From assembly GCA_025458035.1 (NCBI GenBank), contig JALOTH010000020.1:1-41341 (forward strand): DNA of 41,341 bases. Direction: 5' to 3'. Each line of letters begins with the position of its first letter. The stretch's first letter is position 1. Positions 25,890-38,666 of this stretch are shown here, one piece after another. The notes under the pieces were generated by a model. That model was not told the origin of the DNA. It searched no databases and worked only from the letters and a program-made list of their open reading frames with translations. Source of the stretch: Rhodospirillales bacterium (lineage in GTDB: Bacteria; Pseudomonadota; Alphaproteobacteria; Rhodospirillales; Defluviicoccaceae). The position numbers and the translations under genes are program-made.

Positions 25890-25966
25890 GGGCCCGTAGC
25901 TCAACTGGTCAGAGCCGGCCGCTCATAACGGTCTGGTTGCAGGTTCGAGTCCTGCCGGGCCCACCA
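25890..25966 (+). tRNA. tRNA with anticodon CAU (probably tRNA-Ile2, or elongator tRNA-Met)
   Basis: A complete 77-base cloverleaf with encoded CCA. The acceptor stem GGGCCCG/CGGGCCC has 7 pairs and the D stem is GCTC/GAGC. The anticodon stem GGCCG/CGGTC (one G-U) closes the loop CTCATAA, and the T arm is GCAGG-TTCGAGT-CCTGC. Anticodon CAU can be read as Met, or as Ile after lysidine modification by TilS. C4-G69 and C5-G68 in the acceptor stem are TilS-favouring features in E. coli tRNA-Ile2, so Ile2 is preferred. It is not an initiator, since the first acceptor pair G1-C72 is matched. Confidence 0.93.
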
Positions 25967-26652
25967 GCTTCCACGCTTGCCGGTCCGCGTCGGACAACCG
26001 ACGGCGCGTCGCTGCCGCCCCAAGGGGAAGGGTCCGCTCGATCGCGGCTTGAAGGCGCCGGCAGGCCGAGGTGGTCCCGCACTCGGCGGCGAACCTGGTC
26101 GGCAGTGTCGGCTTCGCCAACTTCGAGATAACGGACGCCGGCCTTACGCAGAGCCTCCTTCTTCACCGCGTCCCGGCCCGCCGCGTCGCCTTGGTAGTGG
26201 CCCCGGCCCTGGTGTTCAACGGCGAGGACGGGCCAACCGTACGCGTCAATAATCAGCATGTCGACGCGCTTGCTATTGATCGAACGAAACGCATCGTCCT
26301 CTGGCGTTTCAAGGATCTGACCGAGGCTTGTTTGCGCAAATAAGCGGTAGCCAGAGCGTATCATTTTGATCTCATTTTCAATGATCTTGAAGATGTGATA
26401 CTCTGAGCTGTTGAGGATGCGGCGTTTTTTGAATGAGGCCCCCATCACCGCGCGAAGTTGGTAGCCGATATCCGTCAGATCGGGACCCTGCTGCAGTCTG
26501 CGGGGTGGGTGCGCCCCCCACATTCGAGGCCGGCGGGATCGCCCGACACGTCGGCTCACTCGCTCGGCTACCATCACTACGAGCAAGACCGACACAAACG
26601 CGGCGAACGCTGGTGCCATTCGCAGCACCTCTCCGACATCCCATGACGGCAT
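25909..26652 (-). CDS. DUF2726 domain protein with N-terminal membrane segment
   Basis: A 247-residue protein. Residues about 12-30 form a membrane helix (APAFAAFVSVLLVVMVAE), followed by a basic stretch. The DUF2726 domain covers about 78-180: ILNSSEYHIFKIIE, LFAQTSLGQIL, INSKRVDMLIIDAYGWPVLA, AVEHQGRGHYQ and AVKKEALRKAGVRYLEV. Asp131, Glu146 and Gln148 fit a PD-(D/E)xK-like nuclease core (Asp, then Glu-x-Gln), though activity is unproven. The last 18 or so codons are antisense to the tRNA gene, so the natural C-terminus is doubtful. ATG 26652 was chosen because the membrane segment follows. Base composition around 26.2-26.4 kb looks less GC-rich than its neighbours. Confidence 0.72.
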   Translation of the reverse strand: MPSWDVGEVLRMAPAFAAFVSVLLVVMVAERVSRRVGRSRRPRMWGAHPPRRLQQGPDLTDIGYQLRAVMGASFKKRRILNSSEYHIFKIIENEIKMIRSGYRLFAQTSLGQILETPEDDAFRSINSKRVDMLIIDAYGWPVLAVEHQGRGHYQGDAAGRDAVKKEALRKAGVRYLEVGEADTADQVRRRVRDHLGLPAPSSRDRADPSPWGGSDAPSVVRRGPASVEAGGPGRTRTCNQTVMSGRL

Positions 26653-26910: not shown

Positions 26911-27288
26911 ATGCTTCCAAGAGCCATGAAAGTGCTCGCCGCCGTCGGCCTGATCGCCGCCGCAACCAACCCGGCCGTGGCGGCCGGCGATGCCGAAGCG
27001 GGGAAAAAAGTCTTTGCCAAATGCTCTGCCTGTCACGCTGTAGAACCCGGAAAGAACAAGGTCGGGCCGTCTTTGTATGGCGTGTTCGGCCGCAAGGCCG
27101 GCCAGGATCCGACTTATAAGTATTCCGACGTGATGAAGAATTCCGGCCTCACCTGGGACGAGGCAACCCTGATGGTTTATCTCGAGAAGCCGCAGGACAT
27201 GGTCAAGGGCAGCAAGATGGTCTTCGCCGGCCTACCGAAACCGGAAGACCGAGCCAACGTCATCGCCTACCTGCAAACACTGAAGTAA
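26911..27288 (+). CDS. Class I cytochrome c (c2/c550-like), periplasmic
   Basis: A 125-residue small soluble cytochrome c. Residues 1-25 form a signal peptide ([18 protein letters not shown]). The haem-binding CSACH is at 38-42 in [29 protein letters not shown] and the axial ligand Met103 in [12 protein letters not shown] follow, and the C-terminal helix is [11 protein letters not shown]. The layout is that of mitochondrial-type cytochrome c, an electron carrier between the bc1 complex and oxidases or a reaction centre. ATG 26911 has AGGAG 10 bases upstream; an ATG five codons later would shorten the signal peptide. No oxidase genes are adjacent. Confidence 0.95.
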
Positions 27289-27336
27289 CTCCGGGACAGA
27301 CAGCGACGGCAGGCGCGAGCCGCCGCAGTTGCGACG

Positions 27337-30051
27337 ATGACACCGTACCTGCCGCCGCCGCCCTGCCTCAACATTGCCCGCTACTGTCTCGCCGCTCCGG
27401 CAGCAGCGGCGCCCGACAAGGTCGCGCTGATCATCGCCGGCGGTGGTGGGCAAGAGCGCCGCTGGACTTACCGGGAGATCGAATGGGCCGTTCTGCGCGT
27501 CGCCGCCGGGCTTGCCGAACTGGGTCTGCCGGCGGGTGAGCGGCTGATGATCCGGATGGATAACGATATCGGCTACGTGCTGGCGTTTTTCGCAGCACTG
27601 GCGGCGGGGCTGGTTCCCCTGCCCTCCTCGGCGGCGCTGACCGCGGAGGAGGCCGAATTCCTGCTGACCGATTCCGGCGCACGGATTCTCGCCATTTCGG
27701 ATGACCTCGCCTTGGGCCACGATGTGCCGGCCGACGTGATCATCCTTAGCGAACAGACGATTCTTTCGTTCGCCGCATCTAGCAAGAGCGATAATGCGGC
27801 ACACTATGCGGATACCGGCGCCGACGATCCGGCATTTCTGATCTATACGTCTGGAACCGTCGGCCGGCCGAAGGGAGTGTTGCACGGCCACCGGACCGCC
27901 TGGGGACGGCGGCCGATGTACGACGGCTGGTACGGGATTCGCCCTGATGACGTGATCCTGCATGCCGGCGCCTTCAACTGGACCTATACCCTCGGCGTCG
28001 GCCTGATCGATCCCTGGGCAAATGGCGCGACCGCCGTGCTGTACAACGGGACCGCCGATCCCACCGTTTGGCCCCCCCTCATCGAGCGATTGGGCGTCAG
28101 CATCTTCGCAACGGTGCCAAGCCTGTATCGACGGATCCTCAAGTACGGCGCGTTCCCTCCCGCCGGCATCGCCAGCCTGCGCCACGGGCTGACCGCTGGC
28201 GAAGCCCTTCCCATCGCCGTGCGCGACGGCTGGCGACAGGCGACGGGCACCGAACTCTATGAAGCGCTGGGGATGAGCGAAATATCCACCTACGTCTCGA
28301 CGGGTCCCGGGATGACGATCAAGCCGGGCAGCCCCGGCAAGCCGCAGCCGGGGCGGCGCATCGCCGTTCTCGCCGCCGATGAGGAGACGACGGCGCGCCT
28401 GCTGCCGACCGGCGAGATGGGACTGCTCGCCGTGCACCGCTCCGATCCGGGGTTGATGCTCGGCTACTGGCGGCGGCCCGAGGAGGACGCGCTGGTATGG
28501 CGCGGCGAGTGGTTCTGCGGCGGTGACCTCGCCCACATCGATGCCGACGGCTACGTGTGGTTTCATGGTCGTCACGACGACATCCTTAACCCCAGTGGCT
28601 ACCGGCTGTCGCCCTTGGAGATCGAGGGGGTGCTCGCCCACCATCCGCTGGTGCACGAGGTGGCGGTGGGCGAAGTGGCGGCGGCCGACGATGTGCGCCT
28701 TCTCGTGGCGTTCGTCGTCCCGCATGGACCGCTGCCAGACGGCGACGCTGCCGCTGCCGCCGAGGCCGATATCCTCGGTGAGGTGCCGGCCTCATCCCGC
28801 CGCCGCTTTTCCCCTCGCGGCTTTCCCGGTATGAGCATGCGAACCATGACCTTGATCGGCGAGTCCCAGGAACTGAAAGCGTTTTGCGACCGGCTCAGCG
28901 GCGCCGAGTTCGTTGCCGTCGACACCGAGTTCATGCGCGAGCGGACTTTCTGGCCGAAGCTGTGCCTGGTGCAGGTGGCCGGCCCTGCTGACGGCGATGC
29001 GGCCGCCATCGATGCGCTGGTTCCCAACCTCGACCTGAGCCCGCTGTTCCGGCTGCTGACGGCGCCGGAAACGGTCAAGGTGTTTCATTCCGGCCGTCAG
29101 GATTTCGAGATCTTCTATCACCTGATGGGTCGCCTGCCGGCGCCGGTGTTTGACACACAGGTTGCGGCGATGGTCCTCGGCTTCGGCGATCAGGTGGGCT
29201 ACGAGACGCTGGCGGCACAGGTGGCCAAGACGAAGGTGGACAAGGGTTCGCGCTTCTCCGACTGGTCGCTGCGGCCGCTTTCGGACAAGCAGATCGCCTA
29301 TGCCCTCGCTGATGTCACCCACCTGCGGCCGATCTATCGCAAGCTCAGCCGCGACCTGGAGCTGTCGGGACGCCGCTCCTGGGTAGCCGAGGAGATGGCG
29401 GAGCTGACGAGCCCGGAATCGTATCGGATGGAGCCGTGGGAGGCATGGCGGCGGCTGCGCCTGCGCGGCGGTCGCGGCCGCTTCCTCGCCGTTCTGCGCG
29501 AAGTCACGGCTTGGCGCGAAAGCGAGGCGCAAACCCGCGACGTGCCCCGCGCCTGGATCCTGCGTGACGAGGCGCTCCTCGAGATCGCCCACAACGCGCC
29601 GAAAACGGTCAATGATCTGGCCCGTACCCGCGGCCTCGCGCGAAAATGGGCGGAGGGCGAGATGGGGGAAGCGGTGCTGGCGGCCGTGGGACGAGGACTC
29701 GCCGTGCCGGACAGCGAATGTCCGGAGAGCGAGATCCGCCGGGAGCCGCCGCGCGGCACCGGTCCGATCGCCGAACTCCTGAAAGTGCTGCTGAAGATGA
29801 AATGCGAGACGGAAAAGGTGGCGCAGCGGTTGGTCGCATCCAGCGACGACATCGATCGGATTGCCACCTACGGCGCCACCGCCGACGTCCCCGCCCTGCA
29901 CGGCTGGCGCCGGCAGGTTTTCGGCGAGGACGCCCTGAAGCTGCAAGCGGGCGAACTGGCGCTCGCCATCAAAGGCCGCAAGCTGTCGCTGGTCGCCAAC
30001 CCCGCGGCCGAGGCAAGCCGGATGCCATCGGCCGCACGGGAAGCCTCGTAA
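27337..30051 (+). CDS. Fusion of truncated acyl-CoA synthetase domain and ribonuclease D
   Basis: One open frame of 904 residues. Residues 1 to about 465 are an AMP-forming acyl-CoA synthetase: P-loop LIYTSGTVGRPKG (168-180), YEALGMSEIS, Asp397 in GGDLAH, Arg412 in GRHDDIL and hinge GYRLSPLEIE. The family's C-terminal segment with the catalytic lysine (PRTxxGK motif) is missing; after AFVVPHGPLPDGD comes a 30-residue low-complexity stretch. From Met499 (ATG 28831) follows a full RNase D, an exonuclease that trims tRNA 3' ends. Its DEDDy residues are Asp529, Glu531, Asp589, Tyr655 and Asp659, and an HRDC domain follows. No stop separates the parts, and ATG 28831 lacks a clear ribosome-binding site. 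This could be a true fusion, a deletion, or an assembly error. Confidence 0.85.
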   Translation: MTPYLPPPPCLNIARYCLAAPAAAAPDKVALIIAGGGGQERRWTYREIEWAVLRVAAGLAELGLPAGERLMIRMDNDIGYVLAFFAALAAGLVPLPSSAALTAEEAEFLLTDSGARILAISDDLALGHDVPADVIILSEQTILSFAASSKSDNAAHYADTGADDPAFLIYTSGTVGRPKGVLHGHRTAWGRRPMYDGWYGIRPDDVILHAGAFNWTYTLGVGLIDPWANGATAVLYNGTADPTVWPPLIERLGVSIFATVPSLYRRILKYGAFPPAGIASLRHGLTAGEALPIAVRDGWRQATGTELYEALGMSEISTYVSTGPGMTIKPGSPGKPQPGRRIAVLAADEETTARLLPTGEMGLLAVHRSDPGLMLGYWRRPEEDALVWRGEWFCGGDLAHIDADGYVWFHGRHDDILNPSGYRLSPLEIEGVLAHHPLVHEVAVGEVAAADDVRLLVAFVVPHGPLPDGDAAAAAEADILGEVPASSRRRFSPRGFPGMSMRTMTLIGESQELKAFCDRLSGAEFVAVDTEFMRERTFWPKLCLVQVAGPADGDAAAIDALVPNLDLSPLFRLLTAPETVKVFHSGRQDFEIFYHLMGRLPAPVFDTQVAAMVLGFGDQVGYETLAAQVAKTKVDKGSRFSDWSLRPLSDKQIAYALADVTHLRPIYRKLSRDLELSGRRSWVAEEMAELTSPESYRMEPWEAWRRLRLRGGRGRFLAVLREVTAWRESEAQTRDVPRAWILRDEALLEIAHNAPKTVNDLARTRGLARKWAEGEMGEAVLAAVGRGLAVPDSECPESEIRREPPRGTGPIAELLKVLLKMKCETEKVAQRLVASSDDIDRIATYGATADVPALHGWRRQVFGEDALKLQAGELALAIKGRKLSLVANPAAEASRMPSAAREAS

Positions 30052-30091
30052 TCGCCGGCTTGCCTTCCGGCTCGGCGCCGCTCCGGCAGGA

Positions 30092-31345
30092 TTACAGCAT
30101 GATCCGGGTCAACTCCACCGGTGAGCGTGGCCCCTCGATGACGACCAGGCCGCTTTCGCTGACGAAGAACCGCTTCTTGTCGTCGTCAGGGTCGTAGCCG
30201 ATGACGGTATCGGGCGGAATTTTCACGTTCTTTTCGACGATGCAGCGGCGCAGCTTGCAACGCCGGCCGATGTCGCAGTTGTCGAAAACAATCGAATCGA
30301 TCACTTCCGCACCGGCGTGGACATAGACATGCCGGCCGATGACGGAGTTCTTGATCAACGCGCCGGAAATGATGCAGCCGCCCGACAGCACGCTGTCGAT
30401 GGCATGGCCGCGCCGATCGTCCTCATCGAAGGCGAACTTGGTCGGCGGATCGGAGTAGCCGGCGGTCCGTAGCGGCCAGTCCCGGTTGAACAGATTGAGT
30501 TCCGGTGAAATGGCGCGAATATCCATGTTCGCTTCATAGTAGGCGTCGAGTGTGCCGACGTCGCGCCAATAGGGCAGCTTCTCCGCCGGCTCGCCGGGGA
30601 TCTTGTTTGTCAGGAAGTCATAGGCGAACATCTCGCAACGGTCGATTGCCTTCGGCAGGATGTTCTTGCCGAAATCGTGACTGGAGTCCGGGTCCGCCTG
30701 GTCCTCCTCCACCATCTTCAGCAGCATATCGGTGGAGAAGATGTAGTTGCCCATCGAGGCGAAGACTTTCGACGGATCGCCGGGAATCGTCGGCGCGTTG
30801 GCGTTCTTCTCATGAAAGCCGACGATACGATTGCCGTATGTCGTCTCGATGACGCCGAATTCCCTGGCGTACTTCTTGTCGACAGGCAAAGCCGCGACGG
30901 TAACGTGGGCGCGCTTTTGTTCATGGAACTCGATCATCTCGCGGATGTTCATCCGGTAGATGTGATCGCCGCCAAATACCAGCACCAGATGCGGCGCCGA
31001 CTGCTCGATCAGGTTGATGTTCTGATGGATGGCGTCGGCGGTGCCCCGGTACCAGTCCTTGCCTTCGGAGCGCATTTGCGCCGGCACCGGCACGATGAAC
31101 TCGCTTTTCAGGATGCCGCGTGATTGCCAGCCGTCGCTCAAGTGCTGCAAGAGCGACTGGCTGCGGAACTGGATGACCACGTAGATCGAGTAGATTCCCG
31201 AGTTCACCAGGTTGCTGAGGACGAAATCGATGATCCGGTACTTGCCGCCGAACGGCACCGCCGGTTTCGCGCGCTCCTTGGTCAGCGGGTAGAGGCGAGT
31301 TCCCTCACCGCCGGCGAGCACGAATGCCAGGACCTTCAGCTCCAT
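30092..31345 (-). CDS. glgC: Glucose-1-phosphate adenylyltransferase
   Basis: A 417-residue ADP-glucose pyrophosphorylase, which makes ADP-glucose for glycogen synthesis. The N-terminal nucleotide site is VLAFVLAGGEGTRLYPLTKE. Other motifs are AKPAVPFGGKYRIIDFVLSN, WYRGTADAIHQN, VLVFGGDHIYRMN, FASMGNYIFSTDML and YWRDVGTLDAYYEANMD. A left-handed helix domain at the end contains the sugar-phosphate/allosteric part. All key blocks are present and length is normal. GGGAG precedes the ATG. It converges with the ligase-RNase D gene after a 40-base gap. No other glg gene is adjacent; the maltokinase at the left edge is the only related gene seen. hspQ lies upstream on the same strand with a 148-base gap. 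Confidence 0.96.
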   Translation of the reverse strand: MELKVLAFVLAGGEGTRLYPLTKERAKPAVPFGGKYRIIDFVLSNLVNSGIYSIYVVIQFRSQSLLQHLSDGWQSRGILKSEFIVPVPAQMRSEGKDWYRGTADAIHQNINLIEQSAPHLVLVFGGDHIYRMNIREMIEFHEQKRAHVTVAALPVDKKYAREFGVIETTYGNRIVGFHEKNANAPTIPGDPSKVFASMGNYIFSTDMLLKMVEEDQADPDSSHDFGKNILPKAIDRCEMFAYDFLTNKIPGEPAEKLPYWRDVGTLDAYYEANMDIRAISPELNLFNRDWPLRTAGYSDPPTKFAFDEDDRRGHAIDSVLSGGCIISGALIKNSVIGRHVYVHAGAEVIDSIVFDNCDIGRRCKLRRCIVEKNVKIPPDTVIGYDPDDDKKRFFVSESGLVVIEGPRSPVELTRIML

Positions 31346-31947: not shown

Positions 31948-33495
31948 ATGAACATCGGAAGCCTGCTGCCGCGCCACGCGCGCTATCGCGGCGACCATCT
32001 GGCGCTCGTTGCCAGTGGCCAGCGCCTGACCTTTCGTCAACTGAACGGCTACGTCAACCGGCTCTGTCACGCGCTGCACGCCGCCGGCCTGCGAAAGGGC
32101 GACAAGTTCGCCACTGTCCTGCCCAACTGCCTCGAACTGATGGCCAGTTACTGGGCCGCGGCGAAAACCGGGCTGGTGATCGTGCCGATGAGCCCGCTGC
32201 TGCAGGCAAGCGGGCTGGTAAAGCTGCTGGGCGACGCCGATGCGAGCCTCGTCATCGGCGATCAGGCGTTTGCGGAAACCTTTGCCCGCATTCGCAGCGA
32301 ACTGCCGCTGATCGGCGATGACGGTGCCATCTTCGTCGGCGCGGACACGCCACCGTCCGGCTTTCGCCCGCTCACCGCCCTCCTCGACGGGGCCAGCAGC
32401 GATGAGCCGCCGGATGCGGGGCTGACCGACGACGATGTCTTCAACATCATGTATTCTTCGGGAACCACCGGCCTGCCTAAAGGCATCGTCCACACCCATT
32501 ACGTCCGCGCCATGTACTGCATGCTGTTCGCGCAGGCATGGCGGATGACCCCGGAGAGTATCGTTATTCACGCCGGGTCGATCGTCTTCAACGGCGCCAT
32601 GCTCGATCTGATGCCATGGATGTTCGTCGGCGGCAGCTACATCCTGCATGACAGCTTCTCGGCGGAGCGGATGATCGAAGACATCGCCCGCTATCGTGCC
32701 ACCCACGTCGTCATGGTCCCGGCGCAGATCATCGCCATCCTCAACTCGCCGGCATTCGCCCCGGAAAAGCTGTCATCGCTCGAAATGCTGCATAACGTCG
32801 GCGCCCCCCTGCTCGTCGAACACAAGAAAACGATCAACGCTTTTCTGCCCGGCCGCTTTTACGAACTCTATGGGCTGACGGAAGGTTTCGTGACCATCCT
32901 CGACAAGCATGATGCGGTACGCAAGCTGGGATCCGTCGGCTGCCCGCCGCCGTTTTCCGAAATCCGTGTCGTCAACCCCGATGGAACGCCGTGTGCGCCC
33001 CATGAGGTGGGCGAGATCTGCGGCCGGGGCCCGCTGATGATGCCGGGCTACTACAAGCGTGCCGACCTGACCCGGCAAGCGATCCGCGATGGCTGGCTGC
33101 ATTCCGGCGACGCCGGCTACCTCGACGACGATGGCTATTTGTTCCTCGTCGACCGCATCAAGGACATGATCATCTCCGGCGGCGTCAACGTTTACCCGCA
33201 CGACATCGAAGAGGTCCTCATTCAGCACGACGCGGTGCAGGAGGTGGCGGTGTTTGGTGTACCGGACGCCAAGTGGGGAGAGGTCCCGGTGGCCGCCGTC
33301 GTCCCGCGACGGGACGCCCGCATCGATCGCGCCGCCCTCATCGCCTGGACCAATGCGCGCGTCGGCGCCAAATTCCAGCGCATCGCCGATGTGGTGATCT
33401 ACGAGGAATTTCCCCGCAATGTTGCCGGCAAGACCCTCAAGCGCGAAATGCGCGAGGCTTACCGTCCGTCAACGGACAGGTCGCCGACGCCATAG
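31948..33495 (+). CDS. AMP-dependent acyl-CoA synthetase/ligase
   Basis: A 515-residue complete member of the adenylate-forming ligase family. It has the P-loop IMYSSGTTGLPKGIVHTH (about 167-184), ELYGLTEG, WLHSGDAGYLDDDGYLFLVD, DRIKDMIISGGVNVYPHDIE and the terminal lysine motif FPRNVAGKTLKREMR. It should activate a fatty or aromatic acid to an acyl-CoA through an acyl-AMP. The substrate is not identifiable; its overall look is of FadD/feruloyl- or cyclohexane-type ligases. GGGAGG stands before ATG 31948, and a TATACT -10-like element is at 31904-31909 without a good -35. It converges on the ABC1 kinase gene, with 18 bases between the stops. Confidence 0.9.
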   Translation: MNIGSLLPRHARYRGDHLALVASGQRLTFRQLNGYVNRLCHALHAAGLRKGDKFATVLPNCLELMASYWAAAKTGLVIVPMSPLLQASGLVKLLGDADASLVIGDQAFAETFARIRSELPLIGDDGAIFVGADTPPSGFRPLTALLDGASSDEPPDAGLTDDDVFNIMYSSGTTGLPKGIVHTHYVRAMYCMLFAQAWRMTPESIVIHAGSIVFNGAMLDLMPWMFVGGSYILHDSFSAERMIEDIARYRATHVVMVPAQIIAILNSPAFAPEKLSSLEMLHNVGAPLLVEHKKTINAFLPGRFYELYGLTEGFVTILDKHDAVRKLGSVGCPPPFSEIRVVNPDGTPCAPHEVGEICGRGPLMMPGYYKRADLTRQAIRDGWLHSGDAGYLDDDGYLFLVDRIKDMIISGGVNVYPHDIEEVLIQHDAVQEVAVFGVPDAKWGEVPVAAVVPRRDARIDRAALIAWTNARVGAKFQRIADVVIYEEFPRNVAGKTLKREMREAYRPSTDRSPTP

Positions 33496-36782: not shown

Positions 36783-36890
36783 TGCGTCTTCTCCAAAGCA
36801 GCCCACGGCTTATAAGGTGGGACGCCCGGCGCGACAATCGATGCTCGCGGCGCGATTTCGCCAACCCCCTCGTTGAAGGTCTCCGGCGGC

Positions 36891-38666
36891 ATGTGGGATA
36901 ACCTCGTCAGCCTGTTCTACGCGCAAGCCGAACGTCTCGGCGAGCGGCCGTTTCTGTGGAAAAAGGTCAACGGCACATTCGAGTGCCAAACGTGGCGGGA
37001 GATCGCCGCCCGTGTCAGCGCCCTGGCGCGCGGGCTGCGTCATCTCGGTGTCGGCCGCGGCGACCGGGTGGTGATTGTTTCCGAAAACCGTCCCGCGTGG
37101 TTGATTGCCGACCTTGCCATTATGGCGGCCGGCGGCATCACCGTGCCGGCGTACACCACCAACACGCCGGAGCAGCATCGCTATATCATCACCCATTCGG
37201 GTGCACGCGGCGTGATCGTCTCAACGCGCCGGCTGGCGGACCGGGTGCTGGCCGCTCTTGCGGACGTGGCGCACGTCCGCTTCGTCATCGTCGTTGAACC
37301 GAGCGACGAATTGACGGCCGCGCCGCCGGTCGAAGCCTTCGGTTGGAAGGAGATCATTGCGCTCGGCGATCAGGAGCACACCAACATCGTCGCCGAGGCT
37401 GCGGCCATTGGCGGCGACGACGCCGCTTGCATCATCTACACCTCCGGCACCGGTGGCGAGCCGAAAGGCGTCGTCCAGCCGCATCGCTCGATCCTTCACA
37501 ATTGCCGTGGCGGCATCGAGGCGCTCCAGGAACTCGGAGCCGGCGATGAAGTGTTCCTGTCGTTTCTGCCCTTATCTCATGCCTACGAACATTCAATCGG
37601 CCAGTTCCTGCCCATCGCCATTGGCGCCGAAATTTATTATGCGGAGAGCGTCGACAAGCTCGCCGGCGATTTTCTCCAGGCTCGGCCGACCATCGTCACC
37701 GCGGTGCCCCGATTTTACGAGCTGATGCAACAACGCATCGAAAAGCAGGTGGCCAAGGCGTCTCGCTTGCAACGGGCGCTGTTCACCGCGGCGTTGCGGC
37801 TCGGCCGCAAGCGGCTGGCGGGCGGTCGGCTTTCGATGATCGATGGTGCCGCCGACACACTCGTTGACCGCCTCGTCCGCGATCGCGTCCGCACCCGCTT
37901 CGGTGGCCGCATCAAGGCCATGGTTTCCGGTGGCGCCCCCCTCAACCCGGATGTCGGCTCTTTCTTTTACGCCCTTGGTCTGCCTGTGTTTCAGGGTTAT
38001 GGGCAGACGGAGTCGGGACCGCTGATCTCCGTCAACCGGCCAACCGGACTGCGGATGGACACCGTCGGCCCGCCGATGCAGAGGGTGGACGTCCGCATCG
38101 CCGACGATGGCGAGATCCTGGTTCGTGGCGATCTGGTCATGCTGGGCTATTGGCGAAACGAGGCGGCGACGCAGGAGGTGCTGCGTGATGGCTGGCTGCA
38201 CACGGGCGACATCGGCACCATCGAGGCCGACAAGCATCTGCGCATCACCGACCGCAAGAAGGATATCATCGTCAACTCCGGGGGCGATAACATCTCGCCG
38301 GCACGCATCGAGCTGCTGCTCACCCTGCGGCCGGAAATCGCGCAGGCGATGGTCTACGGCGACCGCCGTCCGCACCTGGTCGCCCTCATCGTGCCGCGGG
38401 CGGACTGGTTGGAGGGGTGGGCCAAGCAGGCGGGATGCAGGCTCGACGACGGCAGCTGGAGCGAGGATCCATCCCTGCACCGTGCGTTGAGCCCGGCGAT
38501 CGACGCGGTGAACAGCCAGCTTTCGGTGATCGAAAGAATAAGGCGCTTTGCCGTGGTGGCTGAGCCGTTTTCCATCGACAATGCGCAGTTGACGCCGACG
38601 CTGAAAATCCGTCGTCACGTCATCCGTTCCGTTCACGAGGCGCGGCTGAACGCCCTCTACGGCTGA
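36891..38666 (+). CDS. Long-chain fatty-acid-CoA ligase (FadD15-like)
   Basis: A 591-residue long-chain acyl-CoA synthetase, which activates fatty acids as acyl-CoA for beta-oxidation or lipid synthesis. Motifs are CIIYTSGTGGEPKGVVQPHR, FLPLSHAYEHSIGQFL, IKAMVSGGAPLNPDVGSFFY, FQGYGQTESGPLISVNRP, WLHTGDIGTIEADKHLRITD and DRKKDIIVNSGGDNISPARI. The end includes LTPTLKIRRHVI, whose lysine corresponds to the catalytic one in this branch. ATG 36891 is preferred; a TTG at 36873 is the alternative. Its last 10 bases overlap the 3' end of the opposing epimerase gene. Confidence 0.94.
   Translation: MWDNLVSLFYAQAERLGERPFLWKKVNGTFECQTWREIAARVSALARGLRHLGVGRGDRVVIVSENRPAWLIADLAIMAAGGITVPAYTTNTPEQHRYIITHSGARGVIVSTRRLADRVLAALADVAHVRFVIVVEPSDELTAAPPVEAFGWKEIIALGDQEHTNIVAEAAAIGGDDAACIIYTSGTGGEPKGVVQPHRSILHNCRGGIEALQELGAGDEVFLSFLPLSHAYEHSIGQFLPIAIGAEIYYAESVDKLAGDFLQARPTIVTAVPRFYELMQQRIEKQVAKASRLQRALFTAALRLGRKRLAGGRLSMIDGAADTLVDRLVRDRVRTRFGGRIKAMVSGGAPLNPDVGSFFYALGLPVFQGYGQTESGPLISVNRPTGLRMDTVGPPMQRVDVRIADDGEILVRGDLVMLGYWRNEAATQEVLRDGWLHTGDIGTIEADKHLRITDRKKDIIVNSGGDNISPARIELLLTLRPEIAQAMVYGDRRPHLVALIVPRADWLEGWAKQAGCRLDDGSWSEDPSLHRALSPAIDAVNSQLSVIERIRRFAVVAEPFSIDNAQLTPTLKIRRHVIRSVHEARLNALYG

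What the first reader, a model, noticed from the sequence alone, without database searches (positions are those of the whole stretch)
27337..30051. Acyl-CoA synthetase without its catalytic-lysine segment fused in frame to a complete RNase D
A single 904-codon frame carries a synthetase that stops after the hinge region (no PRTxxGK motif) and then, after a short low-complexity linker, an RNase D with all DEDDy residues and an HRDC domain. I know of no described acyl-CoA ligase-RNase D protein. A truncated adenylation domain might still bind AMP, CoA or acyl-AMP and tune tRNA trimming, or be a decaying gene whose stop was lost. No frame in the linker encodes the missing C-terminal segment.
Basis: partly seen in the sequence, partly recalled or inferred. 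Interest (0 to 1): 0.6.

Follow-up and report, generated by a model that had tools for sequence, protein, structure and literature searches.

The report
Truncated acyl-CoA synthetase abutting RNase D
A gene rearrangement most likely cut the end off one metabolic enzyme gene and left a complete RNA-trimming enzyme gene, with its own start, directly behind it, so that the two read as one long frame by accident rather than as a purposeful fusion protein.

Summary
In detail: one open frame (27337-30051, 904 codons) carries an acyl-CoA synthetase (ACS) that breaks off halfway through its C-terminal domain, then a complete RNase D. Reading it as an ACS-RNase D protein is weak. In all four other genomes of the genus the ACS is intact and lies at another locus than rnd. 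In this genome aspS and ppx, neighbours of rnd in relatives, lie on other contigs without rnd, so rnd seems to have moved. The end of the "linker" holds a DNA element that stands 20-24 nt before the rnd ATG in 16 of 23 relative loci, and at -24 here: RNase D keeps its usual start, ATG 28846. Simulated joins give an open ACS-rnd frame in 16% of cases. Besides this genome, no fusion was seen among 317 genomes of the order or 385 of the class. Against a long-dead remnant: the ACS part shows no decay (0 of 80 invariant positions changed), so the cut is young, the remnant is still constrained, or the draft assembly is wrong there. Most likely an ordinary rearrangement; interest low.

The parts
27337..28731 (+). 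acyl-CoA synthetase (ANL superfamily) remnant: whole N-terminal domain, hinge and about half of the C-terminal domain; the last 44-58 codons of its relatives, with the catalytic-lysine segment, are missing
   Evidence: Pfam PF00501 and partial PF13193; profile of 30 orthologues ends at residue 465; all 30 orthologues carry the missing end
28732..28821 (+). junction stretch without assigned homology; the breakpoint lies in it or just before it
   Evidence: ACS profile ends at 28731; G+C at second codon positions 0.70 over 28727-28836, against 0.38-0.60 in the 150-nt steps of the frame; no long repeat in the genome
28822..28837 (+). promoter-like rnd upstream element, TTTCCCGGTATGAGCA, 24 nt before ATG 28846
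   Evidence: matrix from 23 relative loci without the window: 15.8 bits; reached in 1 of 5000 shuffles (each of two kinds) and 0 of 1177 other ATG upstream regions. No sigma-70 consensus promoter was found here
28846..30051 (+). complete RNase D (rnd): exonuclease domain with DEDDy residues and HRDC; native start ATG 28846 (in-frame ATGs also at 28831 and 28837)
27337..30051 (+). the 904-codon joint frame
   Evidence: the only such frame among 317 genomes of the order and 385 of the class, each count including this genome

Best explanation
A recent chromosomal rearrangement in this lineage removed the last 44-58 codons and the stop of an ACS gene of the genus and placed rnd, with its own upstream element and ATG, directly behind it. 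Because the junction holds no stop and the phase happens to agree, the two frames run together. RNase D is made from its own start at 28846 as an ordinary 401-residue enzyme. The ACS part lacks the catalytic-lysine segment and should be inactive as a ligase. If the ACS promoter still fires, ribosomes must also make the 904-residue by-product, whose RNase D half may work. Shown: gene content, separate loci in relatives, no rnd beside aspS or ppx in this genome, the conserved element at the end of the linker. Inferred: the event and its youth, the promoter role of the element, inactivity of the ACS part.
For: ACS whole and at another locus than rnd in 4 of 4 genus relatives. aspS (C63) and ppx (C189) of this genome have no rnd beside them, and the only full rnd match is the one in the window. 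The missing ACS end is not found elsewhere at genus-level identity (best 46%, in another synthetase). The rnd upstream element sits at -24 in the window as at -20 to -24 in 16 of 23 relative loci. The predicted start MTLI aligns with the starts of the relatives. An in-frame join is not rare: 3219 of 20000.
Against: No decay in the ACS part: 0 of 80 invariant positions changed, one of the near-invariant ones changed; dN/dS like that of intact pairs. Neutral drift for 3% of the branch would leave these positions untouched with probability 0.04 only, so the cut must be very young if the part is dead. No empty site or breakpoint-flanking relative was found to show the event itself. A sigma-70 consensus scan finds no promoter at the element.
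Confidence: 0.68

Rival explanations
1. Assembly error: the draft genome joins the front of an intact ACS gene to the rnd region, and the true genome has both genes whole and apart.
For: Draft of 239 contigs, 96% complete; the ACS part shows no decay, as expected if the gene is really intact; no relative shares the junction.
Against: No gap letters in the window. Longest perfect match of 28650-28900 elsewhere in the genome is 19 bases among the 44 matches listed (40 of 259 candidates scored), while contig C63 has a 100-base exact inverted repeat at its end, which hints at a long assembly word. The missing ACS end is on no other contig. rnd is apart from aspS in two other genomes of the family too, so such moves happen (G005, G010).
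Confidence: 0.2
2. A real two-domain protein under selection, in which an adenylation N-domain without its catalytic lysine binds a nucleotide, CoA or acyl ligand and tunes RNase D.
For: Open frame through the junction; the ACS part keeps all 80 invariant positions and normal dN/dS; a paper on partial domains that stay functional exists (PMC4432964; only its title and the start of its abstract were seen, in the listing).
Against: Seen in one genome only. Half of a C-terminal domain is an unlikely folding unit (inference). The end of the linker is the rnd upstream element with the native start behind it. In-frame joining is not rare by chance.
Confidence: 0.08

Closest known systems
RNase D (rnd, TIGR01388; E. 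coli RNase D, PDB 1yt3)
   Same: Complete exonuclease domain with DEDDy residues, HRDC domain, start MTLI as in relatives, upstream element of the relatives
   Different: Its frame is open upstream into another gene, and it is not beside aspS as in G001-G004 and G008
ANL-superfamily acyl-CoA synthetases; nearest solved structures anthranilate-CoA ligase 4wv3 and benzoate-CoA ligase 2v7b
   Same: Whole AMP-binding N-terminal domain and hinge region
   Different: Second half of the C-terminal domain with the catalytic lysine missing; all 30 orthologues have it. Substrate unknown: benzoate-CoA ligase model 224 bits against a cut-off of 375
Genes truncated by rearrangement that run in frame into the next gene (a general kind, from general knowledge)
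   Same: Lost 3' end and stop, intact downstream gene with its own start, seen in one lineage only
   Different: The remnant shows no decay yet

Membership tests
RNase D | DEDDy catalytic residues | tested here: met
   D26, E28, D86, Y152, D156 invariant in 15 sequences; alignment with 1yt3
RNase D | HRDC domain and family-level score | tested here: met
   HRDC 55.3 bits against 23.8; TIGR01388 382.2 against 298.95
RNase D | 3' exonuclease activity on tRNA | not testable with these tools
   needs an assay
ANL acyl-CoA synthetase | AMP-binding N-terminal domain | tested here: met
   PF00501 220.4 bits
ANL acyl-CoA synthetase | complete C-terminal domain with catalytic lysine (PRTxxGK-like segment) | tested here: not met
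   39 of 76 positions, below cut-off; missing end in none of six frames of 28601-30120 and not elsewhere in the genome at genus-level identity
ACS-RNase D fusion as a protein family | same domain order in more than one genome | tested here: not met
   besides this genome 0 of 10 in the family, 0 of 316 in the order, 0 of 384 in the class; E <= 1e-60 and E <= 1e-158 in the others, best two candidates per genome scored in the last two; 0 of 11 loci in a scan of genome contigs
ACS-RNase D fusion as a protein family | a linker that is only protein-coding | tested here: not met
   its end is the conserved rnd upstream element and start

The most novel reading that the evidence does not exclude
The 904-residue protein is made and selected: an adenylation N-domain without its catalytic lysine serves as an acyl- or nucleotide-sensing module on RNase D. 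The absence of any decay in the ACS part does not exclude this.
Probability: 0.06. Interest if true: 0.7.

Novelty: new member of a known kind. Interest (0 to 1): 0.17.

Why it matters
Mostly as a caution: in GC-rich genomes a truncated gene can easily stay open into the next one, and a database would then list a false two-domain protein. The conserved element in front of rnd gives a DNA-level way to tell a fusion linker from an old gene start. If the fusion were made and selected, it would be the first link that I know of between an acyl-CoA synthetase fold and RNase D.

Tried and rejected
Frameshift hiding the ACS end: rejected; an orthologue profile found nothing more in six frames of 28601-30120.

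ACS end moved elsewhere in the genome: not found; the best match, 46%, lies in another synthetase.

Other fusions suggested by long open frames at rnd (G048, G018, G034, G058, G023): no ACS match at E <= 1e-5 in any of these five loci. In G034 and G048 the upstream frame reads to me like the opposite strand of aspS (untested).

A small deletion between an ACS and an rnd that were already neighbours: not supported; the genes are not neighbours in any of the four genus relatives. In one search none of the 21 other window proteins matched the relatives' ACS and rnd loci, apart from two further synthetases that match the ACS itself. The RND query was translated out of phase by my mistake; its rows are not used.

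Direct similarity of the linker to relatives' rnd upstream DNA by local alignment: weak. The best, G001, was reached by 4 of 200 shuffles; most others are not above chance. Only the short element is convincing.

Structure prediction and fold search: not run. The combined alignment A2 was misaligned between the two halves, and a fold would not decide between the readings.

Literature: three searches showed no paper on an ACS-RNase D fusion. They found 0, 7 and 1,156 papers above their term thresholds, of which 0, 7 and 10 were listed; I saw titles and starts of abstracts only and opened no paper.

Full report
What is there. The window is contig C50 of a draft genome of 3,125,520 bases in 239 contigs, 96% complete. 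Frame 27337-30051 is open for 904 codons. It holds a whole AMP-binding domain, the first 39 of 76 positions of the AMP-binding C-terminal domain, a 3'-5' exonuclease domain and HRDC. RNase D is complete by family score, by alignment with PDB 1yt3 and by its DEDDy residues, invariant in 15 aligned sequences. A profile of 30 intact ACS orthologues stops at residue 465, nucleotide 28731, and the missing end is in none of six frames of 28601-30120.

Relatives. The four other genomes of the genus, G001-G004, hold this ACS at 72-76% identity and whole, and rnd at 63-66%, on other contigs or, in the single-contig G004, about 1.9 Mb away. In the other six genomes of the family no ACS of this kind passes E = 1e-60; rnd passes in four of the six. 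aspS and rnd are neighbours in G001, G004 and G008, and lie one gene apart in G002 and G003. In our genome aspS is on C63 with another frame upstream of it and ppx is on C189 without rnd; the only full-length rnd match is in the window. rnd is also apart from aspS in G005 and G010. So rnd seems to have moved here, as elsewhere in the family. Besides ours no ACS-rnd fusion was seen in 316 genomes of the order or 384 of the class at E <= 1e-158. These searches scored the best two candidates of each genome and could miss a very divergent fusion. A scan of the genome-contig collection gave 11 loci, each matching either the ACS or the RNase D part, none both.

The linker. Upstream pieces of rnd from 23 relative loci share an element like TTTSCSKGTATAGC: in 16 of 23 it scores at least 11.6 bits at -20 to -24 from the ATG. 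The other 7 have it weakly, elsewhere or not at all. Left out one by one, 15 of 23 keep a best site that at most 1 of 300 Markov shuffles reaches. A matrix built without the window finds TTTCCCGGTATGAGCA at 28822-28837, -24 from ATG 28846, at 15.8 bits. One of 5000 shuffles of each of two kinds, and none of 1177 other ATG upstream regions of the window, reach this.

A scan of 60 genomes with TTTCCGTGTATAGC, one mismatch allowed, gave 19 matches in 18 genomes, fewer than the 44 of the reversed control pattern (my sum of the table), so the word is not enriched as such. Yet six of the 19, including both exact ones, lie at an rnd start by comparison with the coordinates (G016, G017, G027, G036, G043, G047), three of them in genomes outside the training set (G016, G017, G043). 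A sigma-70 consensus scan finds no promoter at 27000-30300, so 'promoter-like' rests on place and conservation only. Longer similarity of the linker to relatives' upstream DNA is weak. The end of the supposed linker is thus best read as the start region of rnd, and RNase D begins with MTLI as in most of its relatives.

Chance. Cutting the ACS genes of G001-G004 60-250 bases before their end and joining 35-70 bases of relatives' rnd upstream DNA gave an open frame from ACS to the rnd ATG in 3219 of 20000 joins. The rnd frame is open for 35 or more codons upstream in 8 of 27 relative loci, 6 of 23 genomes after merging.

State of the ACS part. None of 80 positions invariant in the 30 orthologues is changed; of the near-invariant ones one is (residue 255). 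Pairwise dN and dS are like those of intact pairs (G000-G002 0.19 and 1.10; G002-G004 0.20 and 1.25). Its mean tree distance to 26 outgroup sequences is the largest of the five, 1.24 against 1.15-1.21, a slight excess. With a branch dS near 0.6, neutral drift during 3% of the branch would leave the 80 positions untouched with probability 0.04 (rough, dS is high). So the cut is very young, or the part is still constrained, or the junction is not real. This does not choose between the readings, and it is the main reason why I keep two rivals alive.

Assembly. The window has no gap letters. The longest perfect match of 28650-28900 elsewhere in the genome is 19 bases in the list of 44 matches, 40 of 259 candidates scored. 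Contig C63 ends in a 100-base exact inverted repeat, which hints at a long assembly word. This makes a false join less likely but does not exclude it; no reads were available.

How it most likely works. RNase D is expressed from its own start region and trims RNA 3' ends as usual (function from family knowledge). The ACS fragment lacks the segment with the catalytic lysine and is probably inactive. A 904-residue by-product is made if the ACS promoter is active, since no stop lies between. I hold this at 0.68, an assembly error at 0.2, and a selected fusion at 0.08.

Noticed in passing
28822-28837, and upstream of rnd in L006, L017, L018, L020, L029, L059 and others: A promoter-like element (TTTSCSKGTATAGC) stands so close to the rnd ATG (20-24 nt from its first base) that, if it is a -10 region, the rnd mRNA would be leaderless or nearly so in this order.
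   Followed up: partly
25890-25966 and 25909-26652: A DUF2726 frame on the minus strand overlaps the tRNA-Met gene on the plus strand; the block rpoD to tRNA-Met is kept in G004 and the similarity ends at the tRNA, so the tRNA marks an edge of conserved gene order.
   Followed up: no
L054 6704-6841 and 8592-8730: On contig C63 a 139-base stretch at the aspS start is repeated at 83% identity near the contig end, and the last 100 bases recur inverted at 280-379.
   Followed up: no
L080, L083, L092: In some genomes of the class the intact ACS lies near frames that read by eye like a CaiB/BaiF-type CoA transferase (L080, L092) and a histidine phosphatase (L080, L083, L092); a possible hint at its pathway.
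   Followed up: no
31948-33495 and 36873-38666: Two further acyl-CoA synthetase genes lie downstream in the window; the first has a complete C-terminal domain, the second is named from its match to the ACS only.
   Followed up: partly
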